48,393 bases of DNA from Prochlorococcus sp. AG-402-K21 (GTDB lineage: Bacteria > Cyanobacteriota > Cyanobacteriia > PCC-6307 > Cyanobiaceae): NCBI GenBank assembly GCA_003216775.1, contig QCII01000012.1, positions 1 to 48,393 on the forward strand, in the 5' to 3' direction. Shown in pieces: positions 12,248 to 40,379 of the stretch. Positions within the stretch are counted from its first letter, which is position 1. Each line of letters begins with the position of its first letter. The notes under the pieces were generated by a model, which was given only the letters and a program-made list of their open reading frames with translations, made no database searches and had not been told where the DNA came from. Position numbers and translations under genes: made by a program.

Positions 12248-12271
12248 ACTTAATTCTTATTTTTAAAAATA

Positions 12272-13435
12272 ATGGGAAATAAGAAAAATAATATTAAAAA
12301 GCCTGGTGTTAAGACCTTATCTATTCACCATGGAGAAACTTTTGCAGAAGACACTGGATGCGTTATGCCTCCTATTTTTTCTACATCTACTTTCAAACAT
12401 GGAAATAAAGATAATTTCGACTACACCAGATCAGGCAATCCAAACTTTAGAATTCTGGAAAACATACTCAAATCAATAGAAGATTCTAAATACTGTACAG
12501 TTTTTGGATCTGGAATTAGCGCAGTAACTGCAATTACATCAACACTAAAATCAGGCGACAAGATACTCTGCGAGTCAAATCTCTATGGTTGTACAATAAG
12601 GATGTTCGAAAAAATTTTCAAGAAATTTGGACTAGAAGTTTTATACACAGATTTTACAAACAAAAATAATATTAAAAAGATTTCAAACTTCGAGCCAACC
12701 TTGATATGGCTAGAAAGTCCAACTAATCCACTTTTGAAAATACTTGATATTAAGGCAATTTGTGATGAAGCGAATAAACTCCAAATACCAGTAGTTGTAG
12801 ACAATACCTTTTCCACAGCACTTATTCAGAAACCATTAGACCTTGGTGCAACATTATCGCTTGTAAGCACAACAAAATTCATTAATGGGCATAGTGATGC
12901 ACTTGGGGGAGCAGTACTTACAAATAATGAGGTATGGAAGAGTAAGATGCTTTTCTCTCAAAAAGCTCTTGGGCTTCAACCATCTCCTTTTGATAGTTGG
13001 CTCATTACGAGAGGAGTAAAAACACTTCCTTTAAGAATCGAACAACAAACTCAAAGTGCAGAATTTATTTCTGAAGAATTAGAGAATCATAAAATAATTA
13101 GTAAAGTAATTTACCCTTTTAATCAAGAACATCCGCAATTTAATTTGGCAAAATCGCAAATGAAATCTGGAGGTTCGATGATCACCCTAAAATTAAATTT
13201 AAATAAAGAGGATACTTTTAAATTTTGCAAATCTCTCAAATATTTCTCTCTAGCAGAAAGCCTTGGAGGAGTTGAAAGTTTAATTTGTCACCCCGCGACA
13301 ATGACTCATGCTTCTGTTGATGACAAAACAAAAAATCTACTCGGGATAGATGATACTCTTGTCAGAATATCAATCGGATGTGAAGATACAAACGATTTAA
13401 TCTCAGACATTTTATTTGCTTTAAATAATTTCTGA
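12272..13435 (+). CDS. Cys/Met metabolism PLP enzyme (cystathionine gamma-synthase/lyase family)
   Basis: Fold-type I PLP enzyme of the trans-sulfuration family, 387 aa. Family motifs are clear: the phosphate-binding YTRSGNPN (51-58), the cofactor block VVVDNTFSTALIQKPLDLGA, and the PLP lysine Lys202 in STTKFINGHSDALGG. The C-terminal LAESLGGVESLICHPA block is canonical. The family includes cystathionine gamma-synthase, beta-lyase, gamma-lyase and O-acylhomoserine sulfhydrylase, which cannot be separated with confidence by motif alone. It is followed 3 bp later by a paralogous enzyme and then by cysK, a cluster for cysteine/methionine interconversion. Confidence 0.85.
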   Translation: MGNKKNNIKKPGVKTLSIHHGETFAEDTGCVMPPIFSTSTFKHGNKDNFDYTRSGNPNFRILENILKSIEDSKYCTVFGSGISAVTAITSTLKSGDKILCESNLYGCTIRMFEKIFKKFGLEVLYTDFTNKNNIKKISNFEPTLIWLESPTNPLLKILDIKAICDEANKLQIPVVVDNTFSTALIQKPLDLGATLSLVSTTKFINGHSDALGGAVLTNNEVWKSKMLFSQKALGLQPSPFDSWLITRGVKTLPLRIEQQTQSAEFISEELENHKIISKVIYPFNQEHPQFNLAKSQMKSGGSMITLKLNLNKEDTFKFCKSLKYFSLAESLGGVESLICHPATMTHASVDDKTKNLLGIDDTLVRISIGCEDTNDLISDILFALNNF

Positions 13436-32371: not shown

Positions 32372-32453
32372 GGGTCGGTGCCCGAGTGGTTAAAGGGGGC
32401 GGACTGTAAATCCGCTGGCTCTGCCTACGTTGGTTCAAATCCAACCCGGCCCA
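32372..32453 (+). tRNA. tRNA-Tyr (anticodon GTA)
   Basis: An 82-nt class II tRNA. The acceptor stem is GGGTCGG with CCGGCCC (one G-U pair). The D arm contains CCCGAGTGGTTAAAGGGGG; the anticodon arm is GCGGACTGTAAATCCGC, with anticodon GTA. A long variable arm (TGGCTCTGCCTACG) and T arm GTTGGTTCAAATCCAAC follow. The long variable arm with GTA is diagnostic of bacterial tRNA-Tyr. The CCA end is not encoded. It is 10 bp upstream of tRNA-Thr. Confidence 0.97.
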
Positions 32454-32463
32454 CTTTAAAATT

Positions 32464-32535
<72 letters not shown>

Positions 32536-32657
32536 TACCTCAAACCCTGACTACAACAAACATTTAAGAGAATCGCGCAGCTAAAATTATGATTATTGAA
32601 AATATATCAAGAACTAATGAAAAGAAAATTCTCATTTAATGATTTATAAATCAATAT

Positions 32658-33590
32658 TTAGTATTCCTTTGAAAGTTGTAATGCCTCCATATCTACATCT
32701 AATTTGCCCCCTCTTAGCCATAAAGGAGGGGTATCTAATGGCAACTCGGGGAAATCAGGCTCATAAAATTTAATACTATTTATAGTCATTCCTTCATCGA
32801 AACAAGAATCAGTAAAATCTGTCAATTCAGAATAAGCCAAAAGAGCGCCTTTAATTTGAGCATAACCTGTTTCTGAAGAGGGCAATTCATTTAAAAATCT
32901 TTCACAAATTTCTTTACAGGAAATTCCGTTCTCTTTTTTATAAATAACAACTGAGGCTAGTAAAGATGATTTATTATTTTGAAAGTATCTAACTTGCTGG
33001 ATACTTAACTTATGAATTCTTTCATCAATTGATGTTGTAGATTTTACTTCTATGGCAGGATTAAATTCTGAAGGATAAATATCAATAGTAGAAGTTGCGG
33101 ATGAGGACCATTGATTAGCAATATTAGGAATAAATTTTAATAGTTTCTTTATTGTGCAAGCTTCGGCAAAAAAAGCAGGTCCATTGAAATTACTTTTAGA
33201 ATTTCTTGCCTTTTGAAGAATACAAAAAAATTGTGACAGTTTATCTACGTAATCATTTGATTCAAGAAGAAGATTTATTTGAGATAAGAAACCAAATTGG
33301 TCATCAATATTTTTTCTTTTAAAAACGAGGGGGAATCCCTCTAAATTAAGTTTTTTATTTTCAGAAAAGAATTTTGTATTTTCTTTTAGTGTTAGAAAGT
33401 CCTTGATTTGAAAGCTAGCCAAATCACACTTTAATGGAAGAATAATAATCAAAAAACTATTTTTATCTAAACCAAAAATAGAATCTTTAAATAATTTAAT
33501 ATCACAGGTGAAAACTCCCTCAGTTTTATTAAAAGAATAATCCTTAGCTATCTGATGATAATTTTTAAAATTTTCGAGATTTAACTTCAT
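32658..33590 (-). CDS. PD-(D/E)XK nuclease-fold protein (DUF4420 type), restriction component
   Basis: The last gene of the four-gene cassette. The endonuclease core can be read around residues 170-189 counted from an in-frame ATG at 33608: Asp176 in STIDIYPSEF and Glu187-Val-Lys189 in AIEVKST. This gives the D-(x)n-ExK pattern of restriction-type nucleases, with a preceding helix FFAEACTIKKLL carrying another conserved-looking acid. I prefer the ATG at 33590 (310 aa), because it overlaps the Z1 gene's stop as ATGA, the usual form of coupling. The family is DUF4420, described as PD-(D/E)XK, and found with Z1 and MORC-type ATPases. It is the likely DNA-cutting subunit. Active-site alignment is by eye. 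Confidence 0.8.
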   Translation of the reverse strand: MKLNLENFKNYHQIAKDYSFNKTEGVFTCDIKLFKDSIFGLDKNSFLIIILPLKCDLASFQIKDFLTLKENTKFFSENKKLNLEGFPLVFKRKNIDDQFGFLSQINLLLESNDYVDKLSQFFCILQKARNSKSNFNGPAFFAEACTIKKLLKFIPNIANQWSSSATSTIDIYPSEFNPAIEVKSTTSIDERIHKLSIQQVRYFQNNKSSLLASVVIYKKENGISCKEICERFLNELPSSETGYAQIKGALLAYSELTDFTDSCFDEGMTINSIKFYEPDFPELPLDTPPLWLRGGKLDVDMEALQLSKEY

Positions 33591-35935
33591 TTTGAAAAAA
33601 TTCTCCAACGTCCTAGCCTAGGGAATCTCATACTTATTGCTGACGTTGGGCCAGAATTAAAGAGACTATTAACTTTTCTATGAATTTCTATACTCTCATT
33701 AAATTGACGTTTGTTATTAATTCTAAAATTTACTAAAGAGATTTGAAGTGTAATTGTATCTTTTGAACAAACATCAATATCTGCAGACCATTTTGCTGGT
33801 TTTTTTGATGAACTTACACCCCTTTGTAGATTAGTTTCAGGGATATTTGTTTGAACATCATTAGGGAAGGAGAAACCTCTTTGCATAAATAATTTATCAA
33901 AATTATCTTTTTCTGCACTGATGAATTTCTCTAAAGTTGGATATTCTAAAATCTCTGCATCAACCATTAAACAAGTAAGTATATTTTTTTCACTTGGATA
34001 TTCATCTGGGAAAGTATCGATTATACCTTGATAGATATTCATGATCTTTTCATCCTTGCCGTAAGCATGGAATTTAGACATTATTTTTACTAAATCTAAA
34101 ATATTTAATTGATTAGATTCAAAGCACCTCCAGGTCTCAATTCGAGATCTTTTGAATGTTGGTAAAAATTCTTTAAACAATTCTAAAAATAATGAATAAT
34201 TAGATTCTTGTTCTTTTTTATTCAGAAATTGGCAAAATTTTGGCTTAAACCATTCTTCTGCACTCCCAATATTTAATTCTGGATGTACATTTTTTCTTGT
34301 AGGTTGGAAAGGTTTAACAAGAGGCATTACAAAACCAGCCTTTTCTTGAGGCTTATATTCATTTATATTTTTTCTAAGACCTTTTCTTGTAACTTCTTCT
34401 AATACAATATATTTATGAAAAAAATCTTTGTTTTCAGCATCTAAAAATAATCTAGACAAATTAAAATGATCTTCTTGCTTGTAACCACAAAATCTAGCTC
34501 TTTGTTGAATTGAATCTGAATTTTTTCCAGGTTTTCTTGATAAGTAAGTAACTAAAATTCCTTCAACTGTAAAACCTCTATCAATGCAATTACCTCCTAT
34601 TATGATGTGATAATTGGACTTGTTCCAGAAATCTTTTAAATTTCCTTGTATTGGATTACTGTCATTAATTATAGATTGTGAAATTCCTCCTTCAATTATT
34701 TCTCCAATCGAACTCTTAAAGTTTTCAAATTTTAAATTTGTAGTCTTAAAATTTTTAATGGCATTTTCGAAGGAAAATTTTAAATCTTCGAACACTTCAT
34801 TCTCAAATTCAGAATCTAATAAATTATTTTTCATCGTATTTAAATAATTTCTAATCCAAGAAGAATACCTTTTATGCTCTTCTTTACCCCAATGAGGGTG
34901 GCAAAGCATTGTGAAAGGAGGCTTTAAAGGTTTATCTAAATATATACTTTCTGCAATTGCAGATGAAACAATAAAATGGTGTATTGCTTGTTGCAATGTT
35001 TTTGGCATTTCTGCCTCGGAATCGGAGGGATCTGGTATGTCTTCTGAATCAATATCGAATATAAACTTTTTCATAAGAGACTCAGTAAGAAAATAGTTTT
35101 TTACTCCAATATAGTTTTTTGAACTACTCGAAATCCAAATATAATCTGGGGATAAGGGATCGTCTTTTTCCGTAAGCAAAAGGGCCTGAGCAGTAGCAGT
35201 TACTTGAATATATGTACAAAATTTAGAATGATTTTGCTTTAAATTTACAATACTCAAATTTGTTGAACTTCTCTTATTGGTATTTTTTCTTGCTTGCGTA
35301 TTTAGGCTTGCTTGATCAGCCTCATCGTCAAGAATTAATGATTGTATGGGAAAATTTCTAACATTTAATTCTTTTTCAGAAAAAAGCTCAGAAATATCAT
35401 TAATATATTTTTCATGTTTCAGCATACATAAAACTATCATTTTATTTTTTTTAATAAATTTTTTTCTTTCTATAAGACTTTTTACTTGATCCTTTAATTG
35501 CTCATCATCTTTTGGTTCAGAAGAATTTGGATCAAAAGAATAATAACTAAATTTTTTATTTCCAGGATCAATAGCATTTAGCACTTCTTTAATACGATCT
35601 TGATTCTGAGCTTTAAGGATATTTTTGGTTCCAGTAAGTATTGTTGAAATAAAAAAGTTATTGTCATAAGCAAGAGCTATCACGGAACACATCGCTAAAG
35701 TTTTTCCACTTTGCACTTCACCAATATGTAAAACTGTTCTTTGAGATTTATGAGTATTATCTGTATCTTTAAATAAGCAACGTTTTATAATTTCTAATGC
35801 ATTTTTTCGAATAATATCTAAAGAATTTTTATCAGTTATACCTCTTTCATTTTTTACAAATTCTTCAAAAGCATCATAAGTTTGTCCCATTATTGGCTCA
35901 TGAAATTGTGACTTTGCAGGATAGACTTCTGTCAT
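33587..35935 (-). CDS. Z1-domain superfamily II helicase-like ATPase
   Basis: A 782-aa protein with a P-loop at about 72-79 (GEVQSGKT) and the DEAD-like Walker B ILDDEADQAS at 201-210. The Z1 signature lies far downstream, around residues 446-488: IIIGGNCIDRGFTVEGI, followed by SIQQRARFCGYK (helicase motif V/VI, with arginine finger). The long insert between is typical of Z1 proteins. These act in restriction-like systems, presumably translocating or remodelling DNA with ATP. It is third in the operon, 2 bp after the ATPase gene and overlapping the nuclease gene. All motor motifs are intact. Role in this cassette is inferred from the family's known gene neighbourhoods. Confidence 0.88.
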   Translation of the reverse strand: MTEVYPAKSQFHEPIMGQTYDAFEEFVKNERGITDKNSLDIIRKNALEIIKRCLFKDTDNTHKSQRTVLHIGEVQSGKTLAMCSVIALAYDNNFFISTILTGTKNILKAQNQDRIKEVLNAIDPGNKKFSYYSFDPNSSEPKDDEQLKDQVKSLIERKKFIKKNKMIVLCMLKHEKYINDISELFSEKELNVRNFPIQSLILDDEADQASLNTQARKNTNKRSSTNLSIVNLKQNHSKFCTYIQVTATAQALLLTEKDDPLSPDYIWISSSSKNYIGVKNYFLTESLMKKFIFDIDSEDIPDPSDSEAEMPKTLQQAIHHFIVSSAIAESIYLDKPLKPPFTMLCHPHWGKEEHKRYSSWIRNYLNTMKNNLLDSEFENEVFEDLKFSFENAIKNFKTTNLKFENFKSSIGEIIEGGISQSIINDSNPIQGNLKDFWNKSNYHIIIGGNCIDRGFTVEGILVTYLSRKPGKNSDSIQQRARFCGYKQEDHFNLSRLFLDAENKDFFHKYIVLEEVTRKGLRKNINEYKPQEKAGFVMPLVKPFQPTRKNVHPELNIGSAEEWFKPKFCQFLNKKEQESNYSLFLELFKEFLPTFKRSRIETWRCFESNQLNILDLVKIMSKFHAYGKDEKIMNIYQGIIDTFPDEYPSEKNILTCLMVDAEILEYPTLEKFISAEKDNFDKLFMQRGFSFPNDVQTNIPETNLQRGVSSSKKPAKWSADIDVCSKDTITLQISLVNFRINNKRQFNESIEIHRKVNSLFNSGPTSAISMRFPRLGRWRIFSK

Positions 35936-35937
35936 CT

Positions 35938-37539
35938 TTAATCCCTCATTGTTTTATCAATTGTTTCAATTATTTCATTGAAACATTTTTTATATAAGCC
36001 AACATATCTCTGCCCATTACTTCTCAATAAAATTTCAGTAATAGATTGTGTGACTATTATAGAAGTCAAAACATGTAAAGCTTCTTTGTTCGTATTACAA
36101 AACTGAGATATCAAAGGATGATTTTCTCTAATATTAATAATAAGATTAACTATCTTTGCTTCAGGTCTTTTAGAGAGTTCATCTTGAAACTCAATCTTAT
36201 AGAGATCACTGCTTTCGAATGAATTTAAATTATAAGAAATATTAAATGTAGTTCCAGCTATCTTGATGGAATTTTGATTAACTTCTTTGCTTACGTTCAA
36301 ATAATCTTTTTTTATCTCAATTCCCTCAAATTTATCAATTTTATTTTTACCCAAGTTGGGGAAAATTTTTTCAATACCACCTTGAAGGTTTGTTTGTTCG
36401 GCTACGGTTATATTTAACTCTTCAATTTTCTGAGTAAGTTTTATATCTTCAAAAGCTTTATTAGTTAATTTTTGAAAATTACTTTTAGTCTCTTTATTAA
36501 CTTTTTCCCTATACTTATCTGCCTGCAAAAGTATTGGAAGAGGATAAGAATTCATTTCTTCTTTAAGTTTATCTAAGAACTCTTCCTCTTCATCATCTCT
36601 AAAATCAAAATTATCTTTTGAAAAAGTTACTTGATACCCTTCTAAATGAAGTTCACCAAAAACCCTTAGAGATCTAAAGGAGTTAGATCCAGCGAAAATT
36701 GATTTTGGTTTATATTTTTCTTCATCTGAACCCATAATCAATCTGTTTCTTCGGAAAAGACTAAGTCCTGCTTGAGGGTAAGAACCGTTTCTTCTTATCC
36801 CAACAAATCCAGTAACTTTGCCTCCATTGCTAGTTGAAAATGATATATTCTTTTTCCATTTAATTTCTGTTTTAGAATCTCCATCAGCGTAAGCTGCAGG
36901 AGCAATTAAAATTTCGGGACTATTAAATTTAAGCTTTTCATCATTAAAAAAAATTTCAAGCTGATTAGTATTTAAATAACATCTGTAAATAGAACTAAGA
37001 TGTTTTTTGATCTTTGTTTGTGTACTTGGACCTAATTTTCTGAAAGTATTAAATAATTCAATTTTTGTATATCCTTTTTTTGTTTGACTTTTATTAACCA
37101 GGGAAGATATTAAACCTTCATTTTTTATAACATCTTTAACATCAATTTTATATTGATAATCCAAATCTGAATCTATAGGTTGAGTTACAACTTTCCATGT
37201 AGGACAAAACCAAAATGAAGCAGATTTCATTCCCATTCCAAACTCAGATAAGCCTGCACTATTAGAGGGGGGAATACCTGCTGTAAATGCTCTTGCATGT
37301 TCTGATTCAGATATCCCAAAAGCATTATCCTCAATAGATAAATATCCTCTTTGAGAATCATAATTAATTTGAATGCTACAGATATTTCTTATTTCTCCGT
37401 ACTTGCCATTTTTAGTCAAAAAGCTTTGAAGACTATTGTCAATATATTCTGCTAAGGCATACCAAGATTTATAGTTAAAATTCTTAAAAGCATTTAGGAC
37501 TCCAATATCAGGAGTAATTTTGAAATTCGTATCAATCAT
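35938..37539 (-). CDS. MutL/MORC-type GHKL ATPase
   Basis: ATP-dependent clamp-like protein of the GHKL fold, 533 aa. Bergerat-fold motifs are intact: N box AEYIDNSLQS with Glu31, Asp34 and Asn35; G1 IEDNAFGIS with Asp71 and Gly75; G2 GLSEFGMGMKSAS with Gly96, Gly101 and Lys105. A transducer-like domain follows, with KTEIKWKK and the GRKxxxR-like FRRNRLIMG block. A coiled-coil-prone region (about 340-400) and a C-terminal helical domain complete it. This is the MORC-like family found in prokaryotic restriction-modification loci. Its start overlaps the methyltransferase stop by 4 bp (ATGA). Confidence 0.88.
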   Translation of the reverse strand: MIDTNFKITPDIGVLNAFKNFNYKSWYALAEYIDNSLQSFLTKNGKYGEIRNICSIQINYDSQRGYLSIEDNAFGISESEHARAFTAGIPPSNSAGLSEFGMGMKSASFWFCPTWKVVTQPIDSDLDYQYKIDVKDVIKNEGLISSLVNKSQTKKGYTKIELFNTFRKLGPSTQTKIKKHLSSIYRCYLNTNQLEIFFNDEKLKFNSPEILIAPAAYADGDSKTEIKWKKNISFSTSNGGKVTGFVGIRRNGSYPQAGLSLFRRNRLIMGSDEEKYKPKSIFAGSNSFRSLRVFGELHLEGYQVTFSKDNFDFRDDEEEEFLDKLKEEMNSYPLPILLQADKYREKVNKETKSNFQKLTNKAFEDIKLTQKIEELNITVAEQTNLQGGIEKIFPNLGKNKIDKFEGIEIKKDYLNVSKEVNQNSIKIAGTTFNISYNLNSFESSDLYKIEFQDELSKRPEAKIVNLIINIRENHPLISQFCNTNKEALHVLTSIIVTQSITEILLRSNGQRYVGLYKKCFNEIIETIDKTMRD

Positions 37540-38927
37540 GCAGATAATTTAATACTTTCTTGATTTTGAATAGGTATTAAATTTACTACTTCTTCGATTC
37601 TTTTTTCATATGAAAATAAATTCCTTGCAACCATTTTTGCAACTTCAACATGCACTGCATTTCCTAAAGCAGAAAACCCAGCATTAGAATTTTCTAATAA
37701 TTTCATTTTATCTGGAAAGCCAAAGGCCCTTGCTAGTTCTCTCTTTGTAAGATGCCTTCCCATAGGACCATAAATAGGAGTTTGATTAGCGTTAATAGAA
37801 ACTACTGTAGGAATATAACTTGGATTACTTACCCTAATACCACTAGGTCTTACTTGTATTGTGTGATCCCAAATATTACTGCTTGGTGAAGACTTCCAGT
37901 TCCACTCAAATTTTCTATAGGTATAGTCAAGTTTTCTTATATCTTGAATAATATCTGGGTCAATAAATTTTTTAATTTGTGAAAACCATTCCCTATTACT
38001 ATCGATAAACTTTATTTTCCATAAAGGAAAGCTTGAAACTTTTTCTCTTGCATAAGGTGGCAAAGAATTTAATTCTTTTTCTATTTCTGCAGGAGTCAAT
38101 CCCCTCTCCAAAAAGTTTTGGTATGGTGTTTGAGATACATAAGGATATTGAGCATCAATTTCCTCCAACCACATTGGAGTAGTTGTCATTAAGTCCTTAT
38201 GTTTATTGGGCAAACAATCTACAAATTTATTCCATAAATTTATAGCTTTTACTCCTTGCTCACTGATTATGCAATGTTCTAAGTCGATTAATTTATCTCT
38301 TTTTTTCTTTTTGTCTTTATTAGTCAATAAAATTTTTTTAAGTTTTGGACTTATATTATTGGATATAGGAAATGGATCTTTTGGCAAAAAATCTTGAGAA
38401 CCAATTGCAAAAAACCTATCTCTTTTTTGAGGGAATCCATATTGACTAGGAGATAAATGTTTGGCTGACTTACCATCATCAACGGAATCTGAGGTTGATC
38501 TAACGCAATATCCCAATTCAGTTAAAGCACTCTTAACTTTTCTCCAACTCTCTCCTTTATTGTGTTTAGCAAAATTAGGGACATTTTCAAAAATAAAATA
38601 TTTCGGACGAACTCTTTTTAAAATATTGAGCACATAAAAAATACAATCACCTCTTTTTTTATCATCAAACCCTAATTGTTTTCCACTTTTAGAAAATGGC
38701 TGACATGGGAATCCCGCCACTAAAACATCATGATCTGGAACTTTAGTCCAACATTCTGAAATATCGCCAAAAATAATAGATTTAGAAACTTTATGATTAT
38801 TTTGATATAAATCTCTTAAGTTTTTATCTATTTCGCTCACAAATACGCACTCACCACCAATTGACTCAAGAGCGTAATGAAAACCTCCTAGTCCAGCGAA
38901 CAAATCTACAAATTTAAATGAATTCAT
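37536..38927 (-). CDS. dcm: C5-cytosine DNA methyltransferase
   Basis: Modification enzyme of 463 aa that methylates cytosine C5 in DNA from SAM. Motif order is canonical: I FVDLFAGLGGFH at about 6-17, IV GFPCQPFSKSG with nucleophile Cys75, VI ENV at 114-116, VIII QKRDR at 167-171, then a target-recognition region of roughly 200 residues, and the C-terminal IX-X block (RELARAFGFPD, then LGNAVHVEVAKMVA). It is the first gene of the cassette, so its promoter should lie in 38928-39100. The recognised sequence cannot be read from the protein. Its first position in the operon could let modification precede cutting when the cassette enters a new cell. Confidence 0.95.
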   Translation of the reverse strand: MNSFKFVDLFAGLGGFHYALESIGGECVFVSEIDKNLRDLYQNNHKVSKSIIFGDISECWTKVPDHDVLVAGFPCQPFSKSGKQLGFDDKKRGDCIFYVLNILKRVRPKYFIFENVPNFAKHNKGESWRKVKSALTELGYCVRSTSDSVDDGKSAKHLSPSQYGFPQKRDRFFAIGSQDFLPKDPFPISNNISPKLKKILLTNKDKKKKRDKLIDLEHCIISEQGVKAINLWNKFVDCLPNKHKDLMTTTPMWLEEIDAQYPYVSQTPYQNFLERGLTPAEIEKELNSLPPYAREKVSSFPLWKIKFIDSNREWFSQIKKFIDPDIIQDIRKLDYTYRKFEWNWKSSPSSNIWDHTIQVRPSGIRVSNPSYIPTVVSINANQTPIYGPMGRHLTKRELARAFGFPDKMKLLENSNAGFSALGNAVHVEVAKMVARNLFSYEKRIEEVVNLIPIQNQESIKLSA

Positions 38928-39109
38928 AAAACCATGAACTCTTCAAAATTTACAAGTATTTAATTTTTTTTCAATCTAATATCAAGCTTTTTTAATAAAC
39001 CATTTCTGAATCTAATTCTCAAAATCAATATATATATTCCTATAAATAGTACTTGCATTATGTAATTAATCCACATACCCCACGTAAAGAAATAGGAATT
39101 TAGATTTGG

Positions 39110-39165
39110 TTGAGAGTGGTTTATTTTCAGTACTTACAATGATGATGTACAAACATCCAGTAAGT
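39110..39165 (+). repeat. Dispersed structured repeat, copy 1
   Basis: A 56-bp element that recurs at 43050-43107. It includes the shared strings TTGAGAGTG, TTTATTTTCAGT, GATGATGTA and CATCCAGTAAGT. A small hairpin GATG/CATC can form around 39144-39158, and ACTTAC at the front pairs with GTAAGT at the end. A separate 7-bp hairpin CCTCTTC/GAAGAGG follows at 39197-39221. It lies in the gap between the methyltransferase gene and the 63-aa ORF at 39309 and is not coding in a shared frame. It may be a small RNA or leader. Apart from this element and hairpin, I see no gene in the 381 bp at 38928-39308. Confidence 0.6.
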
Positions 39166-39308
39166 AGTCATATCTAAATTACTTGTATTTTTACCCCCTC
39201 TTCCCATGTATTATGAAGAGGTTTCGTAATTGACTGCTATAAATGGATTCTCGAAGGTCAGCACTTTGACTTAAATTCAGATATGTTTAATATAGACTGT
39301 CTCAAGAA

Positions 39309-39596: not shown

Positions 39597-40379
39597 CTAC
39601 TTAACTGCGAAAGTAACTCCCATAACCGCAGTGATGTCTTTCTTGATAGTGGAGGTGTCATAAGAACCCCAACTACTTACCTTCGTGGAATTCGGAACAG
39701 TTATCTGAAAAACTCCAGTATTCACTCTCTTTAAACCACCTACTTCAGAGCCTGCCTGAAGAGCGATAGCTTCAGCCCTAACTCTTGCATCCTTTGCTGC
39801 CTTAGCAAGCATGTCAACTCGTTTATCAGCCAGCTTTGAATAGGTGAATTCAGGACGGCTTGGTTTCACCCTTACCCCTTTCCCAAGTAATTCTGTTATC
39901 TGACTATGAGTCTTCTGGATGTTATAAACATCCCTACTTTCAATCTCAATATTCTGATAAGTAATCCATTCAGTTCTAATGATTTCATTAGTCTTAGGAT
40001 GCTTGGTTTTATATTCACTTATACTCGCAGGTCCAAGATAAACATCCTGCTTTACACTGTCCTCAATTCCATTGGCTTTAAGGAATTCCATTGTCTTATT
40101 AATGGACTGCTTATGCTTGGTAAAAGAGTCAATCTGAGTTTTACCTGAGGTCTTTACCTGGACTGACCATTTTGCAATATCACTCTCAAAACTCTCTGTA
40201 CTTGCACCAGTAACAGTGATGGTATTTTCAACCGTTCTGAACCCTCTCACAAGGACCGTGGAGGCACCTATAAATCCTCCGAGAGATAAGACGGCCATTG
40301 CGAAAACAAGTGGCGGAGTGCGGCGTATAACACCCAGAGAGTCACTTGGCAGCGACCTGAGTCTTTTAATAATTTTCAT
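39597..40379 (-). CDS. SIMPL-domain (DUF541) periplasmic/membrane-anchored protein
   Basis: A 260-aa protein with an N-terminal cytoplasmic stretch, one membrane helix (LVFAMAVLSLGGFIGASTVLV, about residues 24-43) and a SIMPL domain outside. The domain shows the usual features: ENTITVTGASTESF at its start, the alternating NGIEDSVKQDVYLG region, and the closing helix-strand DARVRAEAIALQAGSEVGGL. SIMPL proteins have been linked to oxidative stress and membrane damage, but the biochemistry is open. Its G+C is well above its neighbours (about 40-52% in two 60-nt lines counted by hand), suggesting acquisition by transfer. It converges with the tiny ORF at 39497. Confidence 0.82.
   Translation of the reverse strand: MKIIKRLRSLPSDSLGVIRRTPPLVFAMAVLSLGGFIGASTVLVRGFRTVENTITVTGASTESFESDIAKWSVQVKTSGKTQIDSFTKHKQSINKTMEFLKANGIEDSVKQDVYLGPASISEYKTKHPKTNEIIRTEWITYQNIEIESRDVYNIQKTHSQITELLGKGVRVKPSRPEFTYSKLADKRVDMLAKAAKDARVRAEAIALQAGSEVGGLKRVNTGVFQITVPNSTKVSSWGSYDTSTIKKDITAVMGVTFAVK

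What the first reader, a model, noticed from the sequence alone, without database searches (positions are those of the whole stretch)
32658..38927. Complete MORC/Z1-type restriction-like cassette: Dcm + GHKL ATPase + Z1 ATPase + PD-(D/E)XK
Four genes on one strand, joined by ATGA overlaps or a 2-bp gap, encode a cytosine methyltransferase with Cys75 intact, a MutL/MORC-type GHKL ATPase with N, G1 and G2 motifs intact, a Z1 helicase-like protein with Walker A/B and the arginine-finger block intact, and a DUF4420 nuclease with Asp176 and Glu187-x-Lys189. This matches the gene set proposed by Iyer, Abhiman and Aravind as an origin of eukaryotic MORC ATPases. To my knowledge its mechanism is little tested, and finding it in a streamlined Prochlorococcus is notable. 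The presence of both a DNA clamp-like ATPase and a helicase-like motor suggests ATP-driven target search before cutting rather than a plain type II enzyme.
Basis: partly seen in the sequence, partly recalled or inferred. Interest (0 to 1): 0.85.

Follow-up and report, generated by a model that had tools for sequence, protein, structure and literature searches.

The report
MORC–Z1 restriction-modification cassette at tRNA-Thr
Four co-directional genes in an ocean cyanobacterium encode a DNA-methylating enzyme, a MORC-like ATPase, a DNA-translocase motor and a DNA-cutting enzyme; together they look like an ATP-driven anti-virus restriction system of a kind predicted in 2008, sitting beside one transfer-RNA gene.

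Summary
Window 32658-38927 (minus strand) carries four intact, tightly packed genes: Dcm-type 5mC methylase, GHKL ATPase with the MORC-specific motif, Z1-domain SF2 motor, DUF4420-type PD-(D/E)XK nuclease. The nuclease is the weakest call (Pfam below cut-off), but relatives score up to 4.5e-30, E-D-ExK is invariant, and its model lists restriction-like nucleases first. The same order occurs in four other Prochlorococcus loci, Butyricimonas and a Rathayibacter plasmid; a broken version lies on a Hymenobacter plasmid. Their Z1 proteins group together (93/88), apart from AIPR-type and NgoAVII-type Z1s. Empty sites put the cassette between the 3' end of tRNA-Thr and a SIMPL gene, where other Prochlorococcus carry two other Z1 architectures or next to nothing. 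It fits the third MORC operon type of Iyer 2008 and overlaps the Z1/DUF4420/Dcm system of Miller 2022. Best mechanism: ATP-dependent restriction as in CglI/NgoAVII, whose Z1 subunit is homologous: the motor works after an unmethylated site is recognised, then the nuclease cuts; MORC probably clamps or loops DNA. New member of a known kind; activity untested.

The parts
37536..38927 (-). C5-cytosine DNA methyltransferase (Dcm type), first gene of the cassette
   Evidence: Pfam DNA_methylase 6.6e-65; Cys75 in PCQ and the ENV block invariant in 5 aligned rows; M.HhaI is the best solved relative, 1.3e-42
35938..37539 (-). MORC-type GHKL ATPase
   Evidence: HATPase_c_3 6.3e-16; Glu31, Asn35, Asp71, Gly101/103 invariant; MORC S5 motif GLSLFRRNRLI at residue 258; the motif occurs in 17 of 1185 ORFs of the loci, and all 17 match GHKL profiles
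33587..35935 (-). Z1-domain SF2 ATPase, probable dsDNA translocase
   Evidence: Pfam Z1 4.9e-26; PADLOC Helicase_II 2.5e-47; 28% identity over 500 aligned positions to the Z1 protein of a gonococcal NgoAVII-type locus; low-confidence model, whose 50 listed VIA-align rows are by their titles SF2 ATPases or complexes that hold one, Z 9.1-10.8
32658..33590 (-). DUF4420 PD-(D/E)XK nuclease, last gene (ATG start, 310 aa; the TTG at 33608 gives 316 aa)
   Evidence: DUF4420 1.1e-3, below cut-off; relatives 4.5e-30 and 1.3e-20; E149-D176-E187xK189 invariant in 5 rows; model pLDDT 86.3; first 12 VIA-align rows are SPARDA nuclease, DpnI, Hjc and PvuII chains, Z 5.0-6.4
32463..32536 (+). tRNA-Thr(GGT), insertion point of the cassette; similarity to empty sites stops at its 3' end
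32372..32454 (+). tRNA-Tyr(GTA), conserved flank
32537..39303 (.). Inserted segment relative to six near-empty sites; the right edge varies between 39057 and 39304 by relative
39597..40379 (-). SIMPL (DUF541) gene, chromosomal flank on the far side; not part of the system
   Evidence: Pfam SIMPL 1.6e-23; 95% identical in L041, 87% in L043
39455..39482 (-). Terminator-like hairpin between SIMPL and the methylase gene, so the cassette is probably its own transcription unit (inference)
   Evidence: 2 overlapping sites, both on the minus strand; 0.2 expected in shuffles

Best explanation
A four-subunit, ATP-dependent restriction-modification system. The methylase (first gene) protects host sites with 5mC. 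The nuclease (last gene) with the Z1 motor forms the restriction complex; an unmethylated site on incoming DNA licenses ATP hydrolysis by Z1, which moves along double-stranded DNA, and cleavage by the PD-(D/E)XK subunit follows when complexes meet or stall. The MORC dimer acts as an ATP-gated clamp or looping factor that holds the DNA and couples recognition to cutting. Shown here: gene content, intact catalytic residues, conserved order, homology of the motor to the Z1 protein of an NgoAVII-type locus, the tRNA-Thr insertion. Inferred: complex formation, translocation, cutting, the MORC role, and anti-phage action.
For: Profiles and invariant catalytic residues. The order Dcm-MORC-Z1-nuclease is kept in L040-L044 and in Rathayibacter, there with 4-bp overlaps at the first and third joints. 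Z1 is homologous to the Z1 protein of a gonococcal 5mC methylase / PLD-B3 nuclease / Z1 locus (28% over 500 positions), the gene set of NgoAVII, whose cleavage needs ATP hydrolysis and whose ATPase needs an unmethylated site (PMC4267653 passages); CglI is proposed to translocate before cutting (PMC5737866 abstract). Foldseek's best match for the Z1 model is the type I motor HsdR of EcoR124I, 7.5e-6. The nuclease model lists restriction-like nucleases first. In a 30-row Z1 tree the seven cassette proteins stand together, 93/88.
Against: No activity, motif or phage test of this cassette was found in what I read. The nuclease is sub-threshold in Pfam; Foldseek found no significant fold match for it, and the VIA-align Z values (up to 6.4) are modest. 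The Z1 model is poor (pLDDT 59), so its fold matches are only suggestive. The nuclease of CglI/NgoAVII is PLD-type with a B3 domain and those systems, as described, have no MORC, so the analogy covers the motor, not the whole machine. The target-recognition part was not identified. No solved MORC protein matched the profile. Single-gene trees place the window differently among the Prochlorococcus cassettes, so the four genes may not always travel together.
Confidence: 0.72

Rival explanations
1. Abortive-infection or sensor system: MORC and Z1 sense phage DNA or replication intermediates and license a toxic nuclease that harms the host too, with the methylase marking self only in part.
For: A related Vsr/Dcm/GHKL/Z1/DUF4420 locus in the genus carries AIPR, an abortive-infection family (Pfam AIPR 4.5e-87 in L022). 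Miller 2022 calls a Z1/AIPR form reminiscent of MZA.
Against: The window insertion has no fifth ORF of 80 aa or more, and the methylase is the first gene of the seven related loci too.
Confidence: 0.12
2. Repair-like nicking: MORC, Z1 and the nuclease act like MutL-UvrD-MutH/Vsr on hemimethylated or mismatched DNA, and the methylase supplies the strand mark.
For: Iyer 2008 notes the MutL parallel and possible recruitment of some members to mismatch repair. Vsr genes lie in other Prochlorococcus Z1 loci and beside the Hymenobacter cassette.
Against: No Vsr match in L040-L044 or L144 nor in the window insertion; patchy presence (4 of 266 genus genomes) is unlike a housekeeping repair function.
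Confidence: 0.06
3. Selfish addiction module: the cassette kills cells that lose it and mainly serves its own upkeep at the tRNA-Thr site; anti-phage action is incidental.
For: It is the only gene content (ORFs of 80 aa or more) of the insertion, and relatives sit on plasmids.
Against: Not exclusive of restriction; selfish RM still restricts. The site also holds other Z1 loci in larger islands, 6 of 7 with an integrase gene.
Confidence: 0.07
4. A plain type II enzyme in which MORC and Z1 are unrelated passengers.
For: Many type II systems are just a methylase and a nuclease (general knowledge).
Against: MORC and Z1 keep intact ATPase motifs and fixed positions in three phyla, with overlapping or closely spaced reading frames.
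Confidence: 0.03

Closest known systems
MORC operons with a Z1-type SFII helicase and RE-fold nuclease, third type (Iyer, Abhiman, Aravind 2008, PMC2292703)
   Same: MORC GHKL with GhXhhpXXRhl, SFII helicase with a DThhQXuRhFG-like motif (here DSIQQRARFCG), RE-fold E-D-ExK protein, cytosine methylase
   Different: No difference in kind seen; sequences and location are new. Figures were not viewable, so the operons drawn there were not compared.
Putative Z1 / PD-(D/E)XK / cytosine methylase system, types I and II (Miller et al. 2022, PMC9523054)
   Same: All three core genes
   Different: Miller's Z1 is a 925-aa protein, with AIPR (type II, associated with MORC) or three extra genes (type I); here Z1 is 782 aa, with MORC and neither AIPR nor other genes
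MzaABCDE (Gao et al. 2020, recalled; not held)
   Same: Remote matches to MzaB (ATPase) and MzaC (Z1 protein)
   Different: Scores far below NCBIfam cut-offs (64 of 1500, 24.4 of 850 bits); no AIPR
CglI and NgoAVII restriction-modification systems (PMC4267653, PMC5737866)
   Same: 5mC methylase plus homologous Z1 motor plus separate nuclease
   Different: Nuclease is PLD with B3 domain there and DUF4420 here; no MORC there
Type I HsdR motor (EcoR124I)
   Same: Best Foldseek match of the Z1 model
   Different: HsdR fuses motor and nuclease and works with HsdM/HsdS (general knowledge)

Membership tests
Iyer 2008 third-type MORC restriction operon | GHKL ATPase with MORC-specific GhXhhpXXRhl motif in the S5 domain | tested here: met
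   GLSLFRRNRLI at 258; present in 5 of 5 aligned cassettes; in 17 of 1185 ORFs, all 17 GHKL
Iyer 2008 third-type MORC restriction operon | SFII helicase with C-terminal DThhQXuRhFG motif | tested here: met
   Near match DSIQQRARFCG at 474: S for T, Q for one h, C for F; Butyricimonas has DTIQQRCRFFG; Z1 4.9e-26
Iyer 2008 third-type MORC restriction operon | Separate RE-fold protein with E-D-ExK | tested here: met
   E149, D176, E187, K189 invariant; model
Iyer 2008 third-type MORC restriction operon | Cytosine methylase in the operon (frequent, not obligatory) | tested here: met
Iyer 2008 third-type MORC restriction operon | Restriction and modification activity | not testable with these tools
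   no experiment possible; the family itself was a prediction
MZA anti-phage system | MzaB and MzaC at equivalog level | tested here: not met
   24.4 bits of 850 and 64 bits of 1500
MZA anti-phage system | AIPR-family protein in the operon | tested here: not met
   no fifth ORF of 80 aa or more between tRNA-Thr and SIMPL
CglI/NgoAVII | Z1-containing SF2 ATPase | tested here: met
   28% over 500 positions, 3e-31 pairwise; 2e-18 in the plasmid collection search
CglI/NgoAVII | PLD nuclease with B3 DNA-binding domain | tested here: not met
   window nuclease matches DUF4420 only; the gonococcal one matches RE_NgoFVII PLD and B3
Miller 2022 Z1 system | Z1 + PD-(D/E)XK + cytosine methylase core | tested here: met
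   definition read
Miller 2022 Z1 system | AIPR (type II) or three further genes (type I) | tested here: not met
   only four ORFs of 80 aa or more in the insertion
Eukaryotic MORC family | Sequence similarity beyond the shared motif | tested here: inconclusive
   profile A7 found no PDB chain at E up to 1; the S5 motif is present

The most novel reading that the evidence does not exclude
The four-gene form is its own lineage of ATP-dependent restriction, found in Cyanobacteriota, Bacteroidota and Actinomycetota, in which a MORC clamp is an obligate part of the cutting machine: it closes on DNA after recognition by the Z1-nuclease complex and sets where translocating complexes stop and cut. 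In Prochlorococcus one tRNA-Thr site exchanges at least three Z1 architectures, so it works as a swap slot for this family.
Probability: 0.3. Interest if true: 0.65.

Novelty: new member of a known kind. Interest (0 to 1): 0.42.

Why it matters
MORC proteins silence transposons in plants and animals, and their proposed bacterial origin in restriction systems rests on gene neighbourhoods. A compact four-gene unit without AIPR or Vsr is a simple form in which to test what a bacterial MORC does. A relative of the cassette sits in the genome of the strain Prochlorococcus marinus MIT 9401 (L041), so its methylome could be read directly if that strain is in culture.

Tried and rejected
Membership in MZA: rejected on scores and missing AIPR. 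Membership in CglI/NgoAVII: rejected, because the nuclease differs. paraMORC2: its ExxxH motif is absent in about residues 242-340 of the five GHKL proteins, while the MORC motif is present.

Vertical divergence of the cassette in place: rejected. Five flank proteins are 84-99% identical between window and L041 or L043, cassette proteins 35-63%, so different versions were acquired or swapped at the same place.

Evidence of mobility inside the window: no second copy of the tRNA-Thr end, and no integrase match among the ORFs of at least 80 aa between tRNA-Thr and SIMPL. MIT 9401 has a 209-aa ORF matching Phage_integrase there. A consensus-like T-arm pattern found nothing in the window.

Sequence-only searches in PDB for Z1, MORC and nuclease gave nothing useful. 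Foldseek alone gave no significant match for the nuclease; only the VIA-align second look put PD-(D/E)XK nucleases at the top. Viral contigs gave two distant Z1 relatives. Five phage records gave partial Z1 matches at 21-26% identity. Of 15 plasmid-collection records with a Z1 match I opened five.

Phylum search: 17 of 386 genomes matched. Of the 12 matching genomes outside the genus I fetched nine loci (L091-L099); they showed lone Z1 genes, a Z1 gene behind a gene with a weak methylase match (L095, L096), or longer sets like the AIPR type (L097, L098, judged by order and size only), and no class A cassette (whose output was cut in the middle). Three weak matches (G619, G522, G295) were not examined. 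The 40 hotspot stretches were chosen for contig reach from 87 genomes and included known Z1 carriers, so 7 of 40 is not a frequency; 24 of the 40 did not reach a SIMPL gene.

Papers: Iyer 2008, abstract and sections 4-6; Miller 2022, section 11 and passages; PMC4267653, passages; PMC5737866, abstract; PMC5379612, PMC8011034 and PMC12137116, passages; PMC8277788, start of abstract in a listing. Gao 2020 is not held, and tycheposon work on Prochlorococcus is recalled only. The listings (each cut to its top rows) showed no paper with a tested MORC/Z1/DUF4420/Dcm cassette.
Full report
What is there. The window (a whole 48,393-base contig of a 1.64 Mb, 20-contig genome) has four minus-strand genes between 32658 and 38927. 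In order of transcription: a C5-cytosine methylase, a GHKL ATPase, a Z1-domain protein and a DUF4420-type nuclease. Pfam places the first three well above cut-off and the fourth below it. PADLOC adds Helicase_II, 2.5e-47, for the Z1 protein. The genes overlap by ATGA at the first and third joints and stand 2 bp apart at the second; the third overlap requires the ATG at 33590 as the nuclease start.

The nuclease. On its own the match is weak (18.6 bits against 27). Relatives at the same position match DUF4420 at 4.5e-30 in Butyricimonas and 1.3e-20 in Rathayibacter. Glu149, Trp167, Asp176, Glu187, Lys189 and Gln205 are invariant in five rows, and an E-W-D-ExK-Q series is invariant in nine proteins at that position of other Prochlorococcus Z1 loci, two of which were checked as DUF4420; the two profiles match at 96.1%, E 3.3e-9. 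AlphaFold2 gives pLDDT 86.3. Foldseek alone found nothing significant. In the VIA-align second look the first 19 of 50 rows are nucleases (SPARDA nuclease, DpnI, Hjc, PvuII, D212, EcoRV, HincII, MutH), Z 3.2-6.4, over residues about 139-316 in most. These are middling Z values. The N-terminal part (28-115) has no convincing match.

The motor. The Z1 protein has GEVQSGKT at 72, DDEAD at 203, TATA at 246 and DSIQQRARFCG at 474. Its model is poor (pLDDT 59.1), yet the 50 listed VIA-align rows, Z 9.1-10.8, are by their titles SF2 ATPases or complexes that hold one, among them CSB, Chd1, RIG-I, FANCM, Mfd, RadD and EcoR124I; Foldseek ranks EcoR124I HsdR first at 7.5e-6. A gonococcal Z1 protein is 28% identical over 500 aligned positions; its neighbours are a C5 methylase and a PLD plus B3 nuclease, the gene set that PMC4267653 describes for NgoAVII. 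The record is another strain, so that this is NgoAVII itself is inference.

The GHKL protein. It carries the MORC motif of Iyer 2008 (GLSLFRRNRLI). Among 1185 distinct ORFs of the loci the motif occurs in 17; all 17 match GHKL profiles, built partly from them, and the one GHKL-matching ORF without it is an 89-aa piece. The profile matches seven GHKL proteins of other Z1 loci (98.8%, E 4.7e-17). No solved eukaryotic MORC was matched, so kinship to MORC rests on the motif and the shared superfamily.

Relatives. Genus search: 25 of 266 genomes have a Z1 relative, 4 of them this type (G000, G113, G222, G028). The genome collection gave five loci from 164 pattern matches: Prochlorococcus AG-410-A05, MIT 9401, AG-442-N17, AG-347-J22 and Butyricimonas synergistica (three of them are the same genomes as G113, G222, G028 by their contigs). 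All five show the order methylase, GHKL, Z1, nuclease (the Butyricimonas nuclease was identified afterwards). A Rathayibacter festucae plasmid has the same four genes, with 4-bp overlaps at joints one and three and a 2-bp gap at joint two, like the window. A Hymenobacter plasmid has Vsr, methylase, GHKL and Z1, with GHKL and Z1 in pieces and no nuclease match. A 30-row Z1 tree puts the seven class A proteins on one side of a branch (93/88, not starred; 92% of bootstrap trees), next to AIPR-type and type-C loci (99/99 for the three together), with the NgoAVII type outside (midpoint root). Single-gene trees of the four genes agree that MIT 9401 and AG-347-J22 are sisters but place the window differently or leave it open, so limited reassortment is not excluded.

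The place. In the window, MIT 9401 and AG-347-J22 the cassette lies between tRNA-Thr(GGT) and a SIMPL gene. Six of 40 surveyed stretches have SIMPL within 1.3 kb of the tRNA; five of these have no ORF of 80 aa or more between, the sixth (L140) one. Against these six, window similarity stops at 32535-32539, the end of tRNA-Thr, and resumes between 39057 and 39304; the 20 bases after the tRNA differ at 13-18 positions. The insertion is thus about 6.5-6.8 kb and holds no other ORF of 80 aa or more. Seven of the 40 hold other Z1 loci: four with GHKL, Z1, DUF4420 and AIPR plus a methylase (as in L022), three with Z1, DUF4420 and three further genes (as in L100); 6 of these 7 have an integrase beside the tRNA. 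In four genomes (G109, G171, G024, G041) a second copy of the tRNA-Thr end lies beyond the Z1 gene, 17-36 kb from the tRNA, as integration at tRNA-Thr would leave. Extra copies also occur in genomes without Z1. The window has none.

Mechanism. In CglI/NgoAVII the R and Z1 proteins act together, ATP hydrolysis needs unmethylated sites and R, and cutting needs ATP hydrolysis (PMC4267653); CglI is proposed to translocate and communicate along DNA before cleavage (PMC5737866 abstract). By homology the window's Z1 should do the same for a DUF4420 nuclease. Iyer 2008 proposed that MORC loops DNA between recognition and cleavage sites; the start of the PMC8277788 abstract, seen in a search listing, says that C. 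[quoted passage not shown] MORC as clamp is inference. The methylase recognition region (178-355, bounds set by me) is 56-61% identical between the window and three other Prochlorococcus cassettes, against 66-68% for the N-terminal catalytic part, so the same target is possible but not shown.

Novelty. The kind was predicted in 2008 and re-found in 2022 with other partner genes. The new parts are this member, the grouping of the AIPR-less four-gene form as one Z1 lineage across three phyla, and the tRNA-Thr slot. The listings of eight paper searches showed no experimental work on this four-gene form; subscription journals are mostly not in that library.

Noticed in passing
L104, L106, L107, L109, L110, L114, L115 (Prochlorococcus stretches downstream of tRNA-Thr); window 32463-32536: The tRNA-Thr(GGT) slot, SIMPL on its far side in six of these seven, holds two further Z1 architectures besides this cassette; six of these seven Z1 islands have an integrase beside the tRNA.
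   Followed up: partly
G109 C1:356528, G171 C1:344639, G024 C1:339371, G041 C1:370617: Second copies of the tRNA-Thr 3' end lie 17-36 kb from the tRNA, with the Z1 gene between, as att sites would.
   Followed up: partly
L103:8601-9146, L099:7269-7829, L038:11282-11866, L091:6982-7437, L093:6411-6878, L094:9407-9898: A conserved protein of about 150-195 aa (LHGA-like start, invariant ISVSR; 23-45% identity to the first row) sits next to a lone Z1 motor in Prochlorococcus-family and larger cyanobacteria, with no methylase, MORC or DUF4420 match seen beside it; no Pfam match for the two copies scanned. It may be an undescribed two-gene Z1 system.
   Followed up: partly
L075:6887-10807 (viral contig IMGVR_UViG_3300040801_002478): A viral contig carries a methylase-like, a GHKL-like and a Z1 gene in that order; the first two matches are weak (E 0.001-0.002), Z1 7e-13. 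The Z1 gene runs to the end of the locus.
   Followed up: no
L076:7269-12159 (viral contig IMGVR_UViG_3300043781_000069): A viral contig with a methylase, a Z1 gene and a Vsr match right behind it.
   Followed up: no
L041:10503-11132: MIT 9401 keeps a 209-aa ORF matching Phage_integrase between its cassette and tRNA-Thr, a likely trace of the element that brought it.
   Followed up: no
L040:8098-15615: In AG-410-A05 the cassette is elsewhere, before a SIMPL homologue and about 7.8 kb from tRNA-Pro, with a fragment at 12262-12876 that looks like a phage capsid protein (by eye, no profile run).
   Followed up: no
L100:11756-15450: Three genes downstream of DUF4420 in a type-C locus (640, 297, 289 aa) have no Pfam family apart from a sub-threshold DUF6339 match in the last.
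   Followed up: no
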